Position numbers and translations under genes: made by a program. This document shows, one piece after another, positions 192 to 15,049 of a DNA stretch of 19,875 nt; the first letter of the stretch is position 1, and every line of letters starts with the position of its first letter. The notes beneath the pieces are model-generated. The model searched no databases and was not told where the DNA came from. It saw nothing but the letters and a program-made list of their open reading frames with translations. This stretch comes from an uncultured Microbacteriaceae bacterium (GTDB taxonomy: Bacteria; Actinomycetota; Actinomycetes; Actinomycetales; Microbacteriaceae): positions 1 through 19,875 of the forward strand of contig CAMLMQ010000031.1 of the NCBI GenBank assembly GCA_946481135.1. Direction: 5' to 3'.

Positions 192-620
192 ATGACGAGC
201 GCAGAACCGCAGGGATCCGCGCCGTCGCGCAAGAGGTCGGTGTTCGCGCTGCTCGCGGACATCCCCACGCTCGTCACCGACCTCGTGCAGCGTGAGATCG
301 AGCTCGTCAAGACCGAACTCGTCGCGAAGTTCAAGGCACTCGGCGTCGGCGCGGGTCTCATCGCCGTCGCGCTCGTCGTGCTGCTCGGCATGCTCGGCGT
401 CCTGTTGACGGCCGCGATCCTCGCGCTCTCACTCGTGATGCCCGGATGGCTCGCCGCGCTGCTCGTCGCGGGCGTCCTGCTGCTCATCGCCGTCGTGCTC
501 GGCCTCATCGGCTACCGCGTGCTGATGCGCGGAGTCCCCCCCGTGCCGACGGAGGCGATCGACAGCATCCGTCGCGATCTCAGAGCCATCAAGGGAACCG
601 GAAAGCGAGGAGCATCATGA
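192..620 (+). CDS. Phage_holin_3_6 family (PF07332-like) membrane protein
   Basis: This encodes 142 residues. An N-terminal cytosolic segment contains the family's amphipathic helix (about residues 24-47, with the pattern DLVQREIELVKTEL). Two long hydrophobic helices follow at about 50-80 and 85-110, then a basic C-terminal tail. Despite the family name, these proteins are ordinary chromosomal envelope proteins in actinobacteria; no lysis role is implied and no molecular function is established. The ATG lies 3 nt after the preceding stop, and the stop overlaps the next start as ATGA, indicating translational coupling with the DUF3618 gene. The family assignment is from the motif and the neighbours; the function is unknown. 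Confidence 0.8.
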   Translation: MTSAEPQGSAPSRKRSVFALLADIPTLVTDLVQREIELVKTELVAKFKALGVGAGLIAVALVVLLGMLGVLLTAAILALSLVMPGWLAALLVAGVLLLIAVVLGLIGYRVLMRGVPPVPTEAIDSIRRDLRAIKGTGKRGAS

Positions 621-5616: not shown

Positions 5617-7176
5617 GGGTGAAGTCTCCAGCACGGCCATCGCGGCGTTGTGTCCGCCGAGGCCGCTGACGGCACCGCCGCGCTGGGCGCCCGACGCGCA
5701 GCGCAGGATGCGGTCGTGCTCGGTCGCGACGCCCCACCGTCGCGCGGGCGTCGAGAGGTCGGCGTCGTCCGCGGCGAACGGCCAGTCGAGCGGTCCGTGG
5801 AAGATGTTGCCGCCCGGCATCCTCAGCGCGTGCTCGAGGTCGAGCGTCGTCTTCGTCTCGATGCACGGTCGGCCGTCGCCGTCGGTCATCACGAGGTCGG
5901 CGATGCTCTCGCCGAGCACCCCGTCGAGCGAGCGCAGCACGGCGGCCTCGAACTCCGCCCGCCGCGCGTCGTTCGTCGCCGCGGTCACGAGACGGTCGGG
6001 GGTCTGCAGCGCGAACACGGTCAGCGTGTGGGCGCCCGCGGCCTGCAACTCGGGGGAGAGGATGCTCGGGTCGGTCAGCGAGTGACAGTAGATCTCGCAC
6101 GGGATCGGGTCGGGCACGCGACCGCGCGCGGCTTCGACGTAGGCGTCGCCGAGCCGGGTCCAGCCCTCGTTGGCGTGGAAGGTGCCGCCAAACGCGGCGG
6201 CCGGGTCGACCGCGGCGTCCCGGAGGCGGGGCAGTCGGCGCAGGAGCAGGTTGACCTTCACCTGCGCCCCCTCGGGCCGGGGTTCCTCGTCGCCGAGCAG
6301 GCGGGCGAACTCGGACGGGGCGATTCCGTTGAGCACGACCTCCGCGGCGAGGCGCACCTCGTCGTCGCCGCGGCGGTAGACCACCTCGCCGTCGGGTGAC
6401 ACCGACGTGACCTCGGCCTCCGCGACGAGCTCGGCACCCGCCTCGACGGCGGCGTGCCACAGGGCGCCGCTCACCGCCCCCATCCCACCGACGGGCACGT
6501 CCCAGTCGCCCGTGCCGCCGCCGATCACGTGGTAGAGGAAGCACCGGTTGGCGTCGAGCGTGGGGTCGACGGGCGGCGCGAACGTGCCGATGAGTGCGTC
6601 GGTCGCGACCACGCCGCGGACGAGGTCGTGGGAGAACCGGTTCTCGATGGCGGCACCGACGGGCTGCTCGACGAAGGTCTCCCAGACGGCGTCGTCGCCG
6701 ACGAGCCGCCGCGCCTCCGATCGGGTGACGAGGGGCTCCGTGACGGTCGGGAAGAGCGCGCGGGCGAGACGCGCGGTGCCGTCGTAGAACTCCCCCCACG
6801 CGGCGATGTCGCCCCGCTCGCCGACGGCGGAGAACGACGCCTGCGTCGCCGCGGCATCCCCGGTGTCGACGAGCAGCCCACGGTCGGTGCCGGGCAGGGG
6901 CGTGTACGACGAGTAGCGGCGACGCGCGAGCCGGATGTCGAGGCGCAGGTCGTCGATGATGCGGCGGGGCAGCAGGCTGACCAGGTACGAGTAGCGCGAC
7001 AGCCGCGCCGACACCCCGGGGAACGCGTCCGCCGACACCGCCGCGCCGCCGAACCCGGGCAGCCGCTCGAGCACGACCACGGAGCGCCCGGCTGACGCGA
7101 GGTACGCGGCGGCGGTGAGCGCATTGTGGCCGCCCCCGACGATCGCGACGTCGACCCGGCGCGTGCCGGACGTCAC
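5614..7176 (-). CDS. FAD-dependent phytoene-desaturase-like oxidoreductase (PYROXD2-type)
   Basis: This encodes 520 residues. The N-terminus VDVAIVGGGHNALTAAAYLA (8-27) is an FAD dinucleotide-binding motif of the HN-containing variant typical of CrtI/PYROXD2-like proteins, with the ribose-binding acidic residue at Glu37 in VVVLER. GFGG at 41-44 follows, and the C-terminal FAD contact VSGLGGHNAAMAVLE closes the chain. The middle contains a WDVPVGGMGAVSGAL stretch that matches the family's P-x-GGM-G motif. These are FAD enzymes oxidising or isomerising lipophilic substrates, but the substrate here is unknown and no carotenoid gene is adjacent. The GTG start at 7176 overlaps the MarR stop (GTGA), so the gene is the second in a coupled pair. 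The stop lies within the shared hairpin at 5560-5616. Confidence 0.85.
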   Translation of the reverse strand: MTSGTRRVDVAIVGGGHNALTAAAYLASAGRSVVVLERLPGFGGAAVSADAFPGVSARLSRYSYLVSLLPRRIIDDLRLDIRLARRRYSSYTPLPGTDRGLLVDTGDAAATQASFSAVGERGDIAAWGEFYDGTARLARALFPTVTEPLVTRSEARRLVGDDAVWETFVEQPVGAAIENRFSHDLVRGVVATDALIGTFAPPVDPTLDANRCFLYHVIGGGTGDWDVPVGGMGAVSGALWHAAVEAGAELVAEAEVTSVSPDGEVVYRRGDDEVRLAAEVVLNGIAPSEFARLLGDEEPRPEGAQVKVNLLLRRLPRLRDAAVDPAAAFGGTFHANEGWTRLGDAYVEAARGRVPDPIPCEIYCHSLTDPSILSPELQAAGAHTLTVFALQTPDRLVTAATNDARRAEFEAAVLRSLDGVLGESIADLVMTDGDGRPCIETKTTLDLEHALRMPGGNIFHGPLDWPFAADDADLSTPARRWGVATEHDRILRCASGAQRGGAVSGLGGHNAAMAVLETSP

Positions 7177-7667
7177 GCCCGCCTCGTCGCCTTCGCGTCG
7201 AGCTCGCACGCCTCGGGGTTGAGGCGGTCGAGCACCCGCCTGGCCGCCTTCTGCAGCACGGCCTTCTCGTCGTCGTCGAGCTGCGCGAGGAAGAGGTCGC
7301 GGATCGCCGCCGCGTGCTCGCGCATGGCGCCGAGGAGGGCGCGCTTGCCGTCGGTCTGCAGGGTCACCCAGGTGCCTCGCCCGTCGGACTCGCACTCGAC
7401 GCGCTTCACGAGACCGCGGGCCTCCATGCGCGCGACCTGGTGCGACACGCGGCTCTTCTCCCATGCGAGCAGCTCCCCGAGCTCGCCGGTGCGCAGCTGC
7501 TGTCCCGGCGCTTCGAAGAGAGAGACGAGGATGCCGTAGTCGGCCTGCGAGAGGCCCGCGTCCCGCTGCAGCTGGCGGTCGAGTTCGCGGCCGAGCTGCT
7601 CGCCCATCGAGCGAAAGGTGCGCCACAGCTCCCAGTCCGCCGGCGACACCTCGGAGACGGTCGACAT
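7173..7667 (-). CDS. MarR family transcriptional regulator
   Basis: This encodes 164 residues with the standard MarR winged-helix layout. An N-terminal dimerisation helix (about 10-38) precedes SQADYGILVSLFEAPGQQLRTGELGELL (40-67). The recognition helix region WEKSRVSHQVARMEARGLVKRV (69-90) follows, then the wing ESDGRGTWVTLQTDGK (93-108) with the conserved D-x-R-G, and C-terminal dimerisation helices. It is transcribed ahead of, and translationally coupled to, the FAD oxidoreductase, and divergently from the PutA-like gene, so either or both are likely targets. No clean palindrome stands out in the 117-bp divergent gap. Ligand unknown. Confidence 0.88.
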   Translation of the reverse strand: MSTVSEVSPADWELWRTFRSMGEQLGRELDRQLQRDAGLSQADYGILVSLFEAPGQQLRTGELGELLAWEKSRVSHQVARMEARGLVKRVECESDGRGTWVTLQTDGKRALLGAMREHAAAIRDLFLAQLDDDEKAVLQKAARRVLDRLNPEACELDAKATRRA

Positions 7668-7681: not shown

Positions 7682-7771
7682 CTCGTGCCGCCCGGCGGGC
7701 GCGGGCGTGGGGCGGGTTCGGGCCGCCCTGTGCGTTCTCCGATTGTCGGCTGAGTGTCAGCCGCGCGGCTC

Positions 7772-7784: not shown

Positions 7785-10700
7785 ATGCCGGAAGGGCCCC
7801 CGACCGACCTGCCCTCTGCCGACGAGGTCGCGCAGCAGGTGGCGCGCTGGGTCGAGACGAGCGCCGAGGCGCCGATCGACCGGGATGCGGAGCGCCTCGA
7901 CACCCTGCTCCGGGATCCGCGGGGCCTGGAGTTCGCCCTCGGCGTCGTCGACCGGGTCATCCGGCCGGAGGACGACCGCGTCGCGGCGACCAGTCTCGAG
8001 CGACTCTCGCGGCGGCTGCCCCAGTTCCTGCCGCGCAGCCTGCGGGCGGCGGTCGTCGCCGGCGGCGGCTTCGGCGTGCTCGTGCCCCGCGCCGTGACGC
8101 CCGCGGTGCGCGGGGTGTTCCGGCGACTCGTGCGGCACCTCGTCGTCGATGCGGCGCCCAAGCACCTCGACCGCACGCTCGCCGAGCTGCGCGACGACGA
8201 CATCCGCCTCGACCTGCACCCGATCGGCGAACCCGCGCTCGGACCGTGGCAGGCGGCCGAGCGTCGCGACGCCGTCGTCGACCTGCTCGCGCGCGAGGAC
8301 GTCGACGGCGTCACCGTGCGCCTCGCCGCCGTCGCGGTGCCGCGCTCGCCGTGGGCGTTCGAGGCGTCGGTCGACGAGCAGACGGAGCTGCTCGCCGCCC
8401 TCCTGCGTCGCACGGCCGACGGGCGGCCGACGGCGATCACCGTCGAGGCTGTCGAGCATCGTGAGCTCGACGTCACGCTGGCCGCCTTCACCCGGGCGCT
8501 CGGCCTCCCGGGACTCACCGGCCGCGCGGCGGGCATCGCGATCCCGACATCGCACCCCGACGCTGTCGCCGCGTTCGACCGGCTCACGGCGTGGGCGCGC
8601 GAGCGGGTGGCCGCAGGGGGCGCCGGCATCCGCATCCGACTTCTTCCCGGCGGCGACGCCCGCCTGCTGCGACTCGTCGAGCGGGCGCTGCGGCCCGCGA
8701 ACGCCGACGCCGTGCGGGTCGGACTCGCGTTCCACGATCCGTTCGTCCTCGCGTTCGCCGCCCTTCTCGCCGAGCGCCGCGAACTCAGCGACCGGGTCGT
8801 GTTCGAGCCGCGCTTGGGGCTCGGAGCCGATCTCGTCGACGCAGTGCGCGCGACGTTCGGCGGGGCGACGCTCGCCGTGCCGGTGGTCGCGGCCGATCAC
8901 TTCGGCGACGCCGTGCCGCTCCTCGTGCGGCGCCTCCGCGAGAGCGTCACCCTGCCGCGCCTCGACGTGGGTGAGCCGGACCGTCTCGCGGCGGCGGCGA
9001 ACCGATTCGCCGCCACGCTCGCCGCGTTCGACCGGCCCGACGACGCACCGCACGGCCCCGACCGCTCGCGGCCGCCGGTGCCGCAGGCCCCCGTCCCGTT
9101 CGTCAACGACGCCCCGGCCGACCCGGCGCTCGCCGGCAACCGGGCGTGGGCGCGTGAACTGCTCGGGCGGGCCGCCGCGTCGACGCACGGCGCGCAGACC
9201 CTGGCCGCCGCCCGAGTCGCCGACGCCGAGCGGGTGCGCGAGCTCGTCGGCGAGGCGGCGGCGGCCGGCCGGGAGTGGGGGAGTCGACCCGGAAGCGCCC
9301 GCGCCGAGGTGATCGACCGCGCCGGCGAGGTGCTCGCCGCCGTGCGCGGCCGCCTCGTCGAGGCGCTCGTCGCCGAGGCGGGCGCGACCCTCGCGGCAGC
9401 CGACGCCGAGGTGGGTCGGACCATCGACCTGACCCACCACGCGGCCGCCCGTGCGCGGGAGCTCGCCGGCATCCGATCGGCGCTGTTCGTTTCCGTTCCG
9501 CTCACGGTCGTGATGCCCGCGCGCTCGCCGGCCCTCGAGACGGCGGCCGATGCGCTTTCAGCGCTCGCCGCGGGCAGCGCCGTGCTGCTCGCCCCGGTCG
9601 ACGGCGCCTCCCGCGTCTCGGCGGTGCTCGTCGAGGCGCTGCACGAGGCCGGCATTCCGGGAGATGTCGCACGTCTCGTCGCGCCCGCCGACGATCCGAC
9701 CCTGCGGGCCCTCGCCGTCGATCCTCACGTGGCGCGCGCGCTCGTCGGCGACGTCGAGACGGCCCGGCGGGTGCGCGGGTGGCGGCCCGACCTCCCGGTG
9801 GTCGCCCGCGGTGCGGGCGTGAACTCGATCGTCGTCACCCCGAGCGCCGATCTCGACGCGGCCGTCCGGGATCTCGTCGCGAGCGCGTTCGGCGGGGCGA
9901 CGCGCGCGGCGGTGGGCATCCTCGTCGGATCGGTCGCCGACTCGGCGACGTTCCGCCGCCGACTGGCCGATGCGGTCACGAGCCTCACCGCGGGCTCCGC
10001 GCTCGATCCGGCGACGCAACTCGCCCCGCTTCCCGAGCCGGCCACGGGCGCCGTCACGCGGCTCGGCGACGGCGAGGGCTGGCTCGTCATGCCGCGCGCC
10101 CTCGACGGCTCGGATCGACTCTGGTCGGCGGGCGTGCGGGAGGGGGTGCGTCCGGGCGCGGCCTTCTCCGGGGATCCGGCGGTACCGGTGCTCTCCCTCG
10201 TCGTCGTCGACTCCCTCGACGACGCGATCGCACTGCAGAACGCCGCCGAGCACGGACCGGTCGCCGGACTGCAGGCGCTCGACCCCACCGAGATCGGCAC
10301 GTGGGCCGACCGGGTCACGGCGGCATCCATCGTCGTCAACCGCGCGATCCCCGGGCTCGTGGTGCGACGCCATCCGCTCGGTGGCCTCTTCGGCGCGGGA
10401 GCGGCGGCCGGGGGTCCGAACACCCTGCTCCCGATGGGCATGTGGGCCCCCGAGCCGCTCGAACCCTCCGAGGAGCTGCGACTCGACGGGCTCGACCCGC
10501 GGGTGCGCGCGACCATCGAGGCGATGCAGCCCGCGCTCGACTTCGGCGGCTTCGACCGCGTGCGGCAGGGGGCGTACTCCGACGAGGAGGCGTGGACGGT
10601 CGAGTACGGCCGTGCCCACGACCCGGTGGCGCTGCCGCTCGAGCGCAACGTCGTGCGCTACCGGCCGGCCGAGGTGGTGGTGCGCCTCAGCGAGGGCGCG

Positions 10701-11105
10701 CCGCTCGCCGACCTCGCCCGCGTGCTCGTCGCGGGGGTGCGCGCCCGGGCGCGGATGCTCGTCTCGAGCGCGGTGCCGCTGCCGTCGGGGATGCTGCCGC
10801 TCGTCGACGACGGCACGCCCCTCGGCCGCTCCCCGATCGGTGTGCTCGGAACTCAGGTCGAGGGCGACGAGGCGTTCCGCGCCCGGGTCGCCCGCGCGCT
10901 GCCCGCCCGCATCCGGTTGATCGGAGGTGACGCGAGCGCGCTCGCGCACGCGACCGGCGGGTCGCTCGACGTCGCCGTGTGGGCGGGGGCGGTCACGGTC
11001 GCCGGGCGTCTGGAGGTGCTGCCGTTCGTGCGCGAGCAGGCGGTGACGATGCCCGCGCACCGCTACGGCATCCCCGACCGTGAGGTCGCGGCCCTCCACC
11101 TCTGA
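7785..11105 (+). CDS. PutA-like protein (type-B layout) with both active sites eroded
   Basis: This encodes 1,106 residues with the layout of type-B PutA: proline dehydrogenase barrel (about 130-415), P5C/aldehyde dehydrogenase domain (about 440-890) and C-terminal domain (about 890-1106). Active PutA oxidises proline to glutamate. Retained are the barrel's RRLRE (382-386), VTPSADLD (684-691), AGGPN (875-879) and the C-terminal REQAVTMPAHRYG (1083-1095). Lost are the barrel's R-V-V-K-G-A segment, which reads RLLPGG (285-290) followed by a deletion of some 25 residues, and the S/A-H-N motif, which reads FHD (316-318). Also lost is the ALDH glutamate (E-T-S-G-K-N has become R-G-A-G-V-N, 675-680). 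The catalytic-cysteine loop H-A-G-Q-K-C-S-A is replaced by a shorter GGATRAAVG (703-711). I find no cysteine in the whole protein. The frame is continuous, so this looks like a maintained non-catalytic paralogue. Comparisons with active PutA are from memory of the family. Confidence 0.75.
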   Translation: MPEGPPTDLPSADEVAQQVARWVETSAEAPIDRDAERLDTLLRDPRGLEFALGVVDRVIRPEDDRVAATSLERLSRRLPQFLPRSLRAAVVAGGGFGVLVPRAVTPAVRGVFRRLVRHLVVDAAPKHLDRTLAELRDDDIRLDLHPIGEPALGPWQAAERRDAVVDLLAREDVDGVTVRLAAVAVPRSPWAFEASVDEQTELLAALLRRTADGRPTAITVEAVEHRELDVTLAAFTRALGLPGLTGRAAGIAIPTSHPDAVAAFDRLTAWARERVAAGGAGIRIRLLPGGDARLLRLVERALRPANADAVRVGLAFHDPFVLAFAALLAERRELSDRVVFEPRLGLGADLVDAVRATFGGATLAVPVVAADHFGDAVPLLVRRLRESVTLPRLDVGEPDRLAAAANRFAATLAAFDRPDDAPHGPDRSRPPVPQAPVPFVNDAPADPALAGNRAWARELLGRAAASTHGAQTLAAARVADAERVRELVGEAAAAGREWGSRPGSARAEVIDRAGEVLAAVRGRLVEALVAEAGATLAAADAEVGRTIDLTHHAAARARELAGIRSALFVSVPLTVVMPARSPALETAADALSALAAGSAVLLAPVDGASRVSAVLVEALHEAGIPGDVARLVAPADDPTLRALAVDPHVARALVGDVETARRVRGWRPDLPVVARGAGVNSIVVTPSADLDAAVRDLVASAFGGATRAAVGILVGSVADSATFRRRLADAVTSLTAGSALDPATQLAPLPEPATGAVTRLGDGEGWLVMPRALDGSDRLWSAGVREGVRPGAAFSGDPAVPVLSLVVVDSLDDAIALQNAAEHGPVAGLQALDPTEIGTWADRVTAASIVVNRAIPGLVVRRHPLGGLFGAGAAAGGPNTLLPMGMWAPEPLEPSEELRLDGLDPRVRATIEAMQPALDFGGFDRVRQGAYSDEEAWTVEYGRAHDPVALPLERNVVRYRPAEVVVRLSEGAPLADLARVLVAGVRARARMLVSSAVPLPSGMLPLVDDGTPLGRSPIGVLGTQVEGDEAFRARVARALPARIRLIGGDASALAHATGGSLDVAVWAGAVTVAGRLEVLPFVREQAVTMPAHRYGIPDREVAALHL

Positions 11106-12451: not shown

Positions 12452-12889
12452 TCAGTCGTAGGAGCGGTGCACGAGGCGCGTGAGCACGATCGCGCTGCGC
12501 GTGTGGTCGACCGACGGCGCCACCCGGATGCGTTCGAGCGCATCCTCGAGCGACGGGATGTCGCGCGAGCGCACGTGCACGATCGCGTCGGCGTCGCCCG
12601 TGACGGTGGCGGCATCCTGCACCTCCGGCACGGCGGAGAGGATGCGGCGCAACTCCTCGGGGGCGACGGTGCCCCGGCAGAAGAGCTCGACGTACGCCTC
12701 GGTCGCGAGTCCGTCGACGACCGGGTCGACCTGCACCGTGAACGCCCGGATCACCCGGTCGGCGACGAGCCGGTCGACGCGGCGCTTGACCGCCGACGCG
12801 GAGAGGCCGATGCGGTCGCCGATGTCGCCGTATCCCGCGCGGGCGTTCTGACGCAGGAGGTCGATGATCCCGTAGTCGAGATTGTCCAT
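12452..12889 (-). CDS. Lrp/AsnC family transcriptional regulator
   Basis: This encodes 145 residues. The N-terminal helix-turn-helix is DYGIIDLLRQNARAGYGDIG (5-24), with recognition region LSASAVKRRVDRLVADRVIRAF (29-50). The C-terminal RAM/effector domain spans about 55-142 (TEAYVELFCRG, then VPEVQDAATVTGDADAIVHV). AsnC-type proteins bind amino acids and regulate their metabolism. The gene is divergent from the dihydrolase-rocD pair across a 103-bp gap that contains a hyphenated palindrome, so local control by arginine or ornithine is likely. The start at 12889 has TACCCT 5 nt upstream and no Shine-Dalgarno sequence. Confidence 0.88.
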   Translation of the reverse strand: MDNLDYGIIDLLRQNARAGYGDIGDRIGLSASAVKRRVDRLVADRVIRAFTVQVDPVVDGLATEAYVELFCRGTVAPEELRRILSAVPEVQDAATVTGDADAIVHVRSRDIPSLEDALERIRVAPSVDHTRSAIVLTRLVHRSYD

Positions 12890-12900: not shown

Positions 12901-12949
12901 CGGCGGATCATTGCGTCGGCCCGGGGTGATTCGACGGAAGGGTGCGCAT

Positions 12950-12974
12950 CAGGCACGGAAACTCCGGATGCCTG
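12950..12974. promoter_or_regulatory. Hyphenated palindrome, candidate Lrp operator
   Basis: CAGGCA...TGCCTG (12950-12955 and 12969-12974) encloses CGGA/TCCG (12956-12959 and 12963-12966), giving an imperfect 25-bp palindrome. It lies 19-43 nt upstream of the dihydrolase start and within the divergent gap shared with the Lrp-type gene. It would cover the promoter of the + strand pair. Confidence 0.4.
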
Positions 12975-12979
12975 CGTGC

Positions 12980-12985
12980 GAGTCT
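12980..12985 (+). promoter_or_regulatory. Possible -10 of the dihydrolase-rocD pair
   Basis: GAGTCT ends 7 nt before the ATG at 12993. It is a poor match to TANNNT but has the same position as the better examples in this window. GGAG at 12986-12989 is only 3 nt from the ATG, close for a ribosome binding site. Confidence 0.25.
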
Positions 12986-12992
12986 GGAGAGC

Positions 12993-13835
12993 ATGCAGGA
13001 TGCCGCCACCCTCGTCGTGCCCGCCGCGCCCGAGCGCGTCGCCGTGAAGAAGACCGTGCTGATGTGCCGTCCGGAGCACTTCACGGTGAGCTACCGCATC
13101 AACCCGTGGATGCATCCCGAGGATCCGACCGACACGAGCCTCGCGGTACGCCAGTGGGAGTCGCTCCACCGCGTCTACCTCGACCTCGGCTTCGACGTCG
13201 AGCTCATCGACCCGCTGCCGGGCCTGCCCGACATGGTCTACGCCGCGAACGGCGGGTTCACCCTCGACGGCATCGCCTACGGCGCGCGGTTCCAGTACGA
13301 CGAGCGCGGGCCGGAGGGGCCGGCGTACATGGACTGGTTCCGGCAGCACGGCTTCGAGGTCGCCGAGCCCGTGAGCGTCAACGAGGGCGAGGGCGACTTC
13401 CTGCTCGTCGGCGACCGCATCCTCGCCGGCACCGGGTTCCGCTCGGACGCCGCGAGTCACGACGAGCTGCGCCGCATCTTCGGCCGGGAGGTCGTGACGC
13501 TGCAGCTCGTCGACCCGTCGTTCTACCACCTCGACACCGCCCTCGCGGTGCTCGACGACCGCAACATCGCCTACCTCCCGAAGGCCTTCTCCGCTGAGTC
13601 GCGCGCCGTGCTCGACGACCTCTACCCGGACGCCGTCACCGTGGACGATGCGGATGCCGCGGTGCTCGGGCTCAACAGCTTCAGCGACGGGCGCCACGTC
13701 GTGATCGCCTCCCGCGCGGTCGGCTTCGAGCGGTCGCTGCGCGAGCGGGGCTACGAGCCGATCGGCGTCGACCTCTCCGAGCTGCTGCTCGGCGGCGGCG
13801 GCGTGAAGTGCTGCACCCTCGAGCTGCGGCGATGA
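12993..13835 (+). CDS. Amidinotransferase-fold guanidine hydrolase: arginine dihydrolase or DDAH
   Basis: This encodes 280 residues of the pentein (DDAH/amidinotransferase) fold. Motifs are LMCRPEHFTVSYRINPWM (23-40), LPDMVYAANGGFTLDG (78-93), EGEGDFLLVG (131-140), FYHLDTALAVLDD (177-189) with His179 and Asp181, and a C-terminal GGGGVKCCTLEL (267-278) carrying the nucleophilic cysteine (Cys273/274). True DDAHs have an acidic pair at the VYAAN position. Asn86 instead resembles the cyanobacterial arginine dihydrolase ArgZ, which releases ornithine, CO2 and two ammonia. The spacing Asn86-Glu133 equals the ArgZ Asn71-Glu118 spacing as I remember it. Translational coupling (ATGA) to ornithine aminotransferase fits ornithine as the product. 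DDAH remains the conservative annotation. Confidence 0.75.
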   Translation: MQDAATLVVPAAPERVAVKKTVLMCRPEHFTVSYRINPWMHPEDPTDTSLAVRQWESLHRVYLDLGFDVELIDPLPGLPDMVYAANGGFTLDGIAYGARFQYDERGPEGPAYMDWFRQHGFEVAEPVSVNEGEGDFLLVGDRILAGTGFRSDAASHDELRRIFGREVVTLQLVDPSFYHLDTALAVLDDRNIAYLPKAFSAESRAVLDDLYPDAVTVDDADAAVLGLNSFSDGRHVVIASRAVGFERSLRERGYEPIGVDLSELLLGGGGVKCCTLELRR

Positions 13836-15049
13836 GCGTGACCACCCTCGTCTCGTCCGCCGAGAGCATCGAGCTCGTCGAGCGGTACGGCGCGCACAAC
13901 TACCACCCGCTCCCCGTCGTCGCCGCGCACGCGACCGGCGCCTGGGTCACCGACCCCGAGGGCAACCGCTACCTCGACTGCCTGGCGGCGTACTCGGCGG
14001 TCAACTTCGGGCACGGCCACCCCGCGCTCGTGCGCGCGGCCCGCGAACAGCTCGACCGCGTGACGCTCACGAGCCGGGCCTTCCACAACGATCGGCTCGG
14101 CCCGTTCCTCGAGGCCCTCGCGCGGCTCGCGAAGAAAGACATGGTGTTGCCGATGAACACCGGCGCCGAGGCGGTCGAGTCGGCCGTCAAGGTGGCCAGG
14201 GCCTGGGGCTACCGGGTGAAGGGCGTTCCCGACGGCCGGGCGAAGATCGTCGTCGCCGACGGCAACTTCCACGGCCGCACCACCACGATCGTGAGCTTCT
14301 CGACCGACCCGCAGGCCCGGGCCGACTTCGGCCCGTTCACCCCCGGGTTCGTGTCGGTGCCGTATGGCGACGTCGCCGCGATGGAGGCCGCGCTCGACGA
14401 CGACACCGTCGCCGTGCTGCTCGAGCCGATCCAGGGCGAGGCGGGTATCATCGTGCCGCGACCCGGGTACCTCGCCGAGGTGCGCCGTCTGACGCGGGAA
14501 CGCGGCATCCTGTTCATCGCCGACGAGATCCAGTCGGGGCTCGGGCGTACGGGGGCGACGTTCCAGTGCGACAACGAGGGCGTCGTGCCCGACCTCTACC
14601 TGCTCGGCAAGGCGCTCGGCGGGGGCATCGTGCCGGTGAGCGCCGTGGTCGGCGATCGGAGCGTACTCGGGGTGCTGCGTCCGGGCGAGCACGGCTCGAC
14701 GTTCGGCGGCAACCCCCTCGCCGCCGCCGTCGGACTCGCCGTCGTCGAACTGCTGCAGACCGGCGAGTACCAGGAGCGCGCCCGCGACCTCGGCGCCCAC
14801 CTGCTCACGCGGTTGAAAGCGCTCGTCGGACACGGCGTGGTCGCCGTGCGCGGCGTCGGCCTGTGGGCGGGCGTCGACATCGATCCCGCGCGCGGCACCG
14901 GGCGGCAGGTCTGCGAGAAGCTCATGACGCGCGGCATCCTCGTGAAGGACACCCACGGGTCGACCATCCGCTTCGCGCCGCCGCTCGTCGTCACGCGCGA
15001 CGAACTCGACCTCGCCGTCGATGCGCTCGCCGAGGTGCTGGGGGCATGA
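13832..15049 (+). CDS. rocD: Ornithine aminotransferase
   Basis: This encodes 405 residues of a class-III PLP aminotransferase. It would transfer the delta-amino group of ornithine to 2-oxoglutarate, giving glutamate 5-semialdehyde/P5C and glutamate. Markers are RYGAHNYHPLPVV (18-30), which is the ornithine aminotransferase start, NTGAEAVESAVKVAR (109-123), GNFHGRT (144-150), EPIQGEAGI (198-206), FIADEIQSGLGRTG (228-241) with Asp231, and LLGKALGGG (257-265) with the Schiff-base Lys260. STFGGNPL (289-296) and the C-terminal RFAPPLVV (380-387) are also present. The start overlaps the stop of the upstream guanidine hydrolase gene. The pair forms a two-step arginine-to-P5C route if the first enzyme is an arginine dihydrolase. 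Confidence 0.9.
   Translation: MSVTTLVSSAESIELVERYGAHNYHPLPVVAAHATGAWVTDPEGNRYLDCLAAYSAVNFGHGHPALVRAAREQLDRVTLTSRAFHNDRLGPFLEALARLAKKDMVLPMNTGAEAVESAVKVARAWGYRVKGVPDGRAKIVVADGNFHGRTTTIVSFSTDPQARADFGPFTPGFVSVPYGDVAAMEAALDDDTVAVLLEPIQGEAGIIVPRPGYLAEVRRLTRERGILFIADEIQSGLGRTGATFQCDNEGVVPDLYLLGKALGGGIVPVSAVVGDRSVLGVLRPGEHGSTFGGNPLAAAVGLAVVELLQTGEYQERARDLGAHLLTRLKALVGHGVVAVRGVGLWAGVDIDPARGTGRQVCEKLMTRGILVKDTHGSTIRFAPPLVVTRDELDLAVDALAEVLGA

What the first reader, a model, noticed from the sequence alone, without database searches (positions are those of the whole stretch)
7785..11105. A full-length PutA-like protein that seems to have lost both catalytic centres but is still intact
Seen directly: one continuous 1,106-codon gene with no cysteine in the product. 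RLLPGG stands where the proline dehydrogenase lysine motif is expected, with about 25 residues missing after it, and GGATRAAVG replaces the aldehyde dehydrogenase cysteine loop. The ALDH glutamate and the NAD-site lysine are also replaced (R675, A603). Yet the C-terminal domain signature REQAVTMPAHRYG and flanking framework match active actinobacterial type-B PutA as I know it. Selective loss of active-site loops with framework and C-terminal domain kept suggests a pseudoenzyme with a structural, regulatory or ligand-sensing job, perhaps pairing with an active PutA elsewhere.
Basis: partly seen in the sequence, partly recalled or inferred. Interest (0 to 1): 0.75.

Follow-up and report, generated by a model that had tools for sequence, protein, structure and literature searches.

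The report
Dead proline-burning enzyme kept intact
An actinobacterium carries a full-length copy of the proline-degrading enzyme PutA whose two reaction centres are both destroyed, yet relatives show that its two ends are still carefully preserved, so it probably does a non-enzyme job that can now be tested.

Summary
Window 7785-11105 (+) encodes an intact 1106-residue protein with type-B (class 3B) PutA architecture. It has no cysteine; the PRODH lysine is proline, 25 residues after it are missing, and the ALDH Lys, Glu and Cys are Ala, Arg and deleted. It is not a lone oddity: P0002 (86% identical) shares both deletions, six further relatives (59-61%) are degenerate at the same sites, and a 52-row tree holds four separate dead clades (AU test against one clade, p 1.5e-7).

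It is not simple decay. P0001-P0002 differences are far more conservative than neutral simulations in all three domains. In the six dead groups measured, catalytic domains evolve about 3-5 times faster than in canonical sisters, the C-terminal domain only 1.1-2.1 times. P0001 keeps 49 of 52 canonical-invariant positions in the N-terminal arm plus C-terminal domain, against 148 of 272 in the catalytic domains (p 5.8e-9).

Best reading: a pseudoenzyme kept for a non-catalytic, probably assembly or regulatory, role of its arm and C-terminal domain. Pairing with an active PutA in the same cell could not be tested: no genome is held for this window.

The parts
7785..11105 (+). Pseudo-PutA, 1106 aa, type B / class 3B architecture
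7785..8144 (+). N-terminal arm, aa 1-120: 23 of 24 canonical-invariant positions kept
8637..8654 (+). RLLPGG (aa 285-290) in place of the R-x-VKGA motif; Lys replaced by Pro; 25 residues missing directly after it
9591..9593 (+). A603 in place of the ALDH NAD-site Lys
9807..9809 (+). R675 in place of the ALDH catalytic Glu
9891..9917 (+). GGATRAAVG (aa 703-711): catalytic Cys loop shortened by 4 residues, Cys absent
10455..11102 (+). C-terminal domain, aa 891-1106: slowest-evolving of the three domains in clades A and B, 26 of 28 canonical-invariant positions kept
11031..11069 (+). C-terminal motif REQAVTMPAHRYG; E1084, Q1085, H1092, R1093, G1095 invariant in 90 aligned active and dead relatives
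7173..7667 (-). Divergent MarR-family regulator; 117 bases between its start and the pseudo-PutA start
7747..7763 (.). Perfect 7-nt palindrome CGGCTGA-GTG-TCAGCCG in the divergent intergenic; possible operator (inference)
12452..12889 (-). Lrp/AsnC-family regulator
12942..13835 (+). dimethylargininase (ddaH, NF045659 above cut-off)
13808..15049 (+). ornithine aminotransferase (rocD, TIGR01885 above cut-off), a source of P5C/GSA

Best explanation
The gene encodes a pseudoenzyme descended from an active class 3B PutA. Shown from sequence: the residues of both catalytic centres are gone while the reading frame is kept and the fold is predicted to be kept, and the N-terminal arm (aa 1-120) and C-terminal domain (aa 891-1106) stay under strong constraint although the constraint that catalysis imposes has gone. 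Inferred: the arm and C-terminal domain form an assembly or docking module with a job independent of catalysis, most likely joining an active PutA (or the membrane or another partner that PutA docks on) and tuning its amount, localisation or activity, as inactive paralogues do elsewhere. Likely route (inferred): gene redundancy relaxed one copy, active-site residues were lost stepwise, and the module was kept. My estimates: dead and maintained by selection, 0.85; acting as a partner or regulator of an active PutA specifically, 0.35.
Against: No active PutA was shown in the host: no genome is held, and no genome with a dead and an active copy was seen. No DNA of close relatives, so no dN/dS. 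The 90-row alignment behind the good model is mostly canonical; with 15 degenerate rows alone pLDDT falls to 71.7 and pTM to 0.57, with pLDDT under 50 at (among others) 749-799, 846-883, 942-962 and 1074-1098, the last of which holds the conserved C-terminal motif; no 15-row canonical control was run. P0035 (p 0.23) and P0146 (p 0.09) miss significance and P0121 is marginal at 0.046. The CTD is also faster in dead groups, up to 2.1 times in P0010/P0035/P0072. In the Frigoribacterium clade the CTD is not clearly the most conserved domain in close pairs. Arm and CTD constraint could serve only folding or stability. Loss of activity is inferred from sequence, not assayed. Domain rates were not measured for P0076/P0121 or P0254/P0276.
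Confidence: 0.55

Rival explanations
1. Slow decay: a redundant putA copy drifting neutrally whose frame stays open only because stop codons are rare in a 73% G+C genome.
For: Long spurious ORFs are common here; neutral simulation to the P0001-P0002 divergence expects only about 0.9 to 2.3 stops over the three domains together; catalytic domains are clearly accelerated; Cys and Lys depletion fits GC-biased drift.
Against: Amino-acid differences are far more conservative than neutral in all three domains (0 of 200 simulations in each setting), at levels like those of canonical pairs in the same call; full-length in-frame relatives at 86% and about 60% identity; CTD and arm constraint kept in several independent lineages.
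Confidence: 0.15
2. Stand-alone scaffold or regulator: the protein acts by itself (membrane, DNA or another partner) in a cell that no longer has, or does not need it to touch, an active PutA.
For: The same conserved module fits; the CTD has been implicated in functional switching, with membrane association of a type-B PutA being redox-regulated (PMC5293562, passages); the gene sits by a divergent MarR regulator.
Against: No DNA-binding domain among the Pfam hits or the 25 of 31 NCBIfam hits shown; rocD beside it makes P5C/GSA, which normally calls for a P5C dehydrogenase (and general knowledge).
Confidence: 0.25
3. New enzyme: the rebuilt pockets bind another substrate or do other chemistry, so this is neofunctionalisation rather than loss of catalysis.
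For: Replacement motifs recur within clade A (PGD in P0002-P0007, EPTLG in P0003-P0007, ATTAVN in P0005-P0008); R285 and the RR pair at 382-383 are kept in P0001 and nearly throughout.
Against: In P0001 the 25-residue segment after the Lys is absent and the ALDH Cys loop is shortened; in its barrel the strongest canonical constraints were lost as often as weaker ones (67/133 against 28/52 kept); replacement motifs differ between lineages.
Confidence: 0.08

Closest known systems
Class 3B / type B PutA (Corynebacterium freiburgense PutA, PDB 5ux5)
   Same: Whole-length fold and domain order: arm, PRODH barrel, ALDH, CTD.
   Different: Catalytic Lys, Glu and Cys absent; 25 residues missing after the Lys motif. 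The class 3B paper itself was not held.
ALDH16A1 (human ALDH pseudoenzyme; PMC10650815, passages)
   Same: ALDH-superfamily protein without the catalytic triad, thought to act through protein interactions.
   Different: Human, without PutA architecture (recalled); here a PRODH domain is dead as well and the state arose repeatedly in one bacterial family.
Trypanosoma AdoMetDC prozyme (PMC6221367, abstract start in search listing)
   Same: Inactive paralogue; there it pairs with the enzyme to form the active complex, the mechanism proposed here.
   Different: Different protein family; pairing is untested here.

Membership tests
PutA, type B / class 3B | Arm, PRODH barrel, ALDH and CTD in one chain, no N-terminal RHH domain | tested here: met
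PutA, type B / class 3B | PRODH catalytic/FAD site (VKGA Lys, following segment, Tyr, RR..E) | tested here: not met
   Lys to Pro, 25 residues missing, Tyr to Ala; RR and the Glu kept
PutA, type B / class 3B | P5C dehydrogenase site (Asn, NAD-site Lys, Glu, Cys, EFFGP) | tested here: not met
   Asn, Lys, Glu, Cys and the E and G of EFFGP all changed or missing
PutA, type B / class 3B | Proline to glutamate activity | not testable with these tools
   needs an assay
Pseudoenzyme of the PutA family | Homologous fold without catalytic residues | tested here: met
   (fold predicted, not solved)
Pseudoenzyme of the PutA family | Maintained by purifying selection | tested here: met
   protein-level tests only, no dN/dS
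Pseudoenzyme of the PutA family | Works through an active paralogue in the same cell | not tested
   no genome held

The most novel reading that the evidence does not exclude
Microbacteriaceae have repeatedly turned PutA into a non-catalytic protein, and what selection keeps each time is the N-terminal arm plus the C-terminal domain. That domain would then have a catalysis-independent function (assembly or docking) in PutAs generally, not only the catalytic-support and channelling role now given to it.
Probability: 0.45. Interest if true: 0.75.

Novelty: new variant of a known kind. Interest (0 to 1): 0.62.

Why it matters
Pseudoenzymes are known, but a PutA dead in both centres, with four separate dead clades among the sampled relatives, did not appear in the listings of my searches of a PMC open-access library (which listed 1 of 1, 0, 10 of 9,353, 6 of 6 and 12 of 33 papers; most subscription papers are not held). 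The rate pattern separates the constraints on the PutA C-terminal domain from those of catalysis, so 'what is this domain for' becomes testable with natural separation-of-function proteins. It also warns that automatic labels are wrong for some of these genes: the representative P0265 of a 198-member Curtobacterium cluster, named a bifunctional PRODH/GSA dehydrogenase, lacks the ALDH Glu and Asn.

Tried and rejected
Own-genome search for a second putA: no genome held. The genome-contig scan with P0001 gave 34 loci whose record titles name no Actinomycetota (mostly proteobacterial, one Acidobacteriota, one Clostridiales), so no Microbacteriaceae handle was obtained. Viral contigs gave no relative. 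Plasmid tblastn gave three actinobacterial PutAs, all with canonical motifs, so they are not pseudo-PutAs. Rfam (gathering threshold) and tRNA scans of the window were empty. Matching contig lengths between degenerate and canonical proteins, by eye in the tables, gave only the Frondihabitans pair, in which both are canonical. Assembly error thought unlikely (P0002). A single origin of the dead state rejected, with the caveat that long branches are present. Frameshifted relatives could not be looked for.

Full report
What is there. The + strand frame 7785-11105 encodes 1106 residues, with 0 Cys and 1 Lys. phmmer against PDB sequences puts it closest to Corynebacterium freiburgense PutA 5ux5 (E 1.5e-117). 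Pfam sees only the ALDH domain. Aligned with canonical P0011, a Pseudolysinimonas PutA by its source name, every reader claim holds: RLLPGG for RIVKGA with 25 residues missing after it, APV for KPA, RGAG for ETSG, and GGA----TRAA for GNAGQKCSAA.

Relatives. The first protein search listed 120 of 234 hits. P0002 is 86% identical with the same deletions; P0003-P0008 (59-61%) have no PRODH Lys and no ALDH Glu, and five of these six (all but P0003) still keep the Cys. Around them stand canonical Pseudolysinimonas-type PutAs. At 12 catalytic or ligand positions, 133 of 160 rows were canonical and 22 full-length rows had four or more changes. A third search, from the Frigoribacterium protein P0138, added 104 rows: 17 more had four or more changes, and 77 of the 108 aligned rows, four references included, were canonical. 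Counting PRODH Lys lost together with ALDH Glu or Cys lost, 18 of the 264 rows are dead in both centres (counted by hand). These shares are not prevalences, as dead proteins were the queries. P0027 (one site changed) and P0010 (four changed) branch just outside the fully dead clade A (support 88 and 92), suggesting stepwise loss.

Origins. In a 52-row mixture-model tree the dead label needs four changes, all forced by starred branches, and one clade is rejected (p-AU 1.5e-7). Reading these as four losses assumes that catalytic sites are not regained. Long branches are a caveat (warning).

Selection. On fixed topologies with lengths refitted per domain, distance from the common ancestor to tips rises from 0.20 to 1.02 (PRODH with arm) and 0.26 to 1.01 (ALDH) between canonical rows and clade A, but only from 0.26 to 0.36 in the CTD. 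Clade B gives 0.68, 0.89, 0.41, and the looser group P0010/P0035/P0072 0.93, 0.88, 0.55. Three more groups show PRODH 0.28 to 0.85-1.12, ALDH 0.29 to 1.00-1.37, CTD 0.59 to 0.64-0.78; a mixed Curtobacterium group with mostly ALDH-site changes shows a weaker form of the same (0.12/0.21, 0.13/0.22, 0.33/0.34). Among distant canonical pairs the CTD is the least conserved of the three domains; among distant clade-A and clade-B pairs it is the most conserved. Of columns invariant in 20 canonical PutAs, P0001 keeps 23/24 in the arm, 56/119 in the PRODH barrel, 92/153 in ALDH and 26/28 in the CTD. The arm-plus-CTD excess has the same direction in 20 of 20 dead rows and p < 0.05 in 18; P0035 and P0146 miss it. 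Sixteen held-out canonical rows keep 0.89-1.0 of the CTD columns; in the barrel all but P0027 (0.81) keep 0.92 or more, and in ALDH all but P0027 (0.89) keep 0.95 or more. Differences between P0001 and P0002 are much more conservative than neutral simulation (mean BLOSUM62 0.26, 0.05 and 0.87 in PRODH, ALDH and CTD against about -0.7 to -0.9; 0 of 200 in each of 18 settings) and resemble those of two canonical pairs. So the catalytic domains are relaxed but not free, and the arm and CTD are constrained. No codon-level test was possible.

Surroundings. A MarR-family gene is divergent (7173-7667), with 117 bases between and a perfect 7-nt palindrome at 7747-7763. Downstream lie a GntR regulator, an Lrp/AsnC regulator, ddaH and rocD. 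Ornithine aminotransferase makes P5C/GSA (established biochemistry), the substrate that an active PutA ALDH domain would oxidise; the cell presumably has another P5C dehydrogenase, but this was not tested.

Mechanism. The CTD has been credited with ALDH activity, channelling and functional switching in other PutAs (PMC5293562, passages), and the N-terminal arm of the Thermus PRODH with oligomerisation and helix alpha8 stabilisation (PMC6017737, passages; whether aa 1-120 here corresponds to that arm was not tested). If supporting catalysis were their only job, both should relax once catalysis is gone. They largely do not, although a plain folding or stability role is not excluded. I therefore infer a catalysis-independent assembly or docking role, most economically as a partner of active PutA. 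Coexistence of a dead and an active copy was not seen.

Verdict. Real, more than chance, recurrent, and not filed as an active PutA. New variant of a known kind (a pseudoenzyme), with an open and testable function.

Noticed in passing
P0265 (one search list; 198 member sequences, Curtobacterium): Representative PutA with PRODH sites intact but ALDH Glu changed to Gly and Asn to Ser; P0231, P0249, P0250, P0252, P0258 and P0260 also vary at one or more of the 12 sites. A PutA with a damaged ALDH site may be common in this genus.
   Followed up: partly
P0110 and P0180 (Frondihabitans sp. 762G35, contig length 3,409,251): Two canonical PutAs, apparently on one chromosome and on different branches of the tree, suggesting that PutA redundancy exists in the family.
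   Followed up: partly
P0276 (Frigoribacterium sp. CFBP9030) and P0254: Another lineage with a dead ALDH site (Cys loop GQAPW) that keeps the PRODH Lys.
   Followed up: no
window 12942-15049: ddaH and rocD overlap (13808-13835 as listed; rocD also has a Met at its ninth codon, 13832), an arginine/ornithine catabolic pair next to an AsnC-type regulator.
   Followed up: no
window 192-620: Actinobacterial Holin-X domain protein (PF07332, E 1.9e-28), upstream of the hemD-like gene at 783-1649.
   Followed up: no
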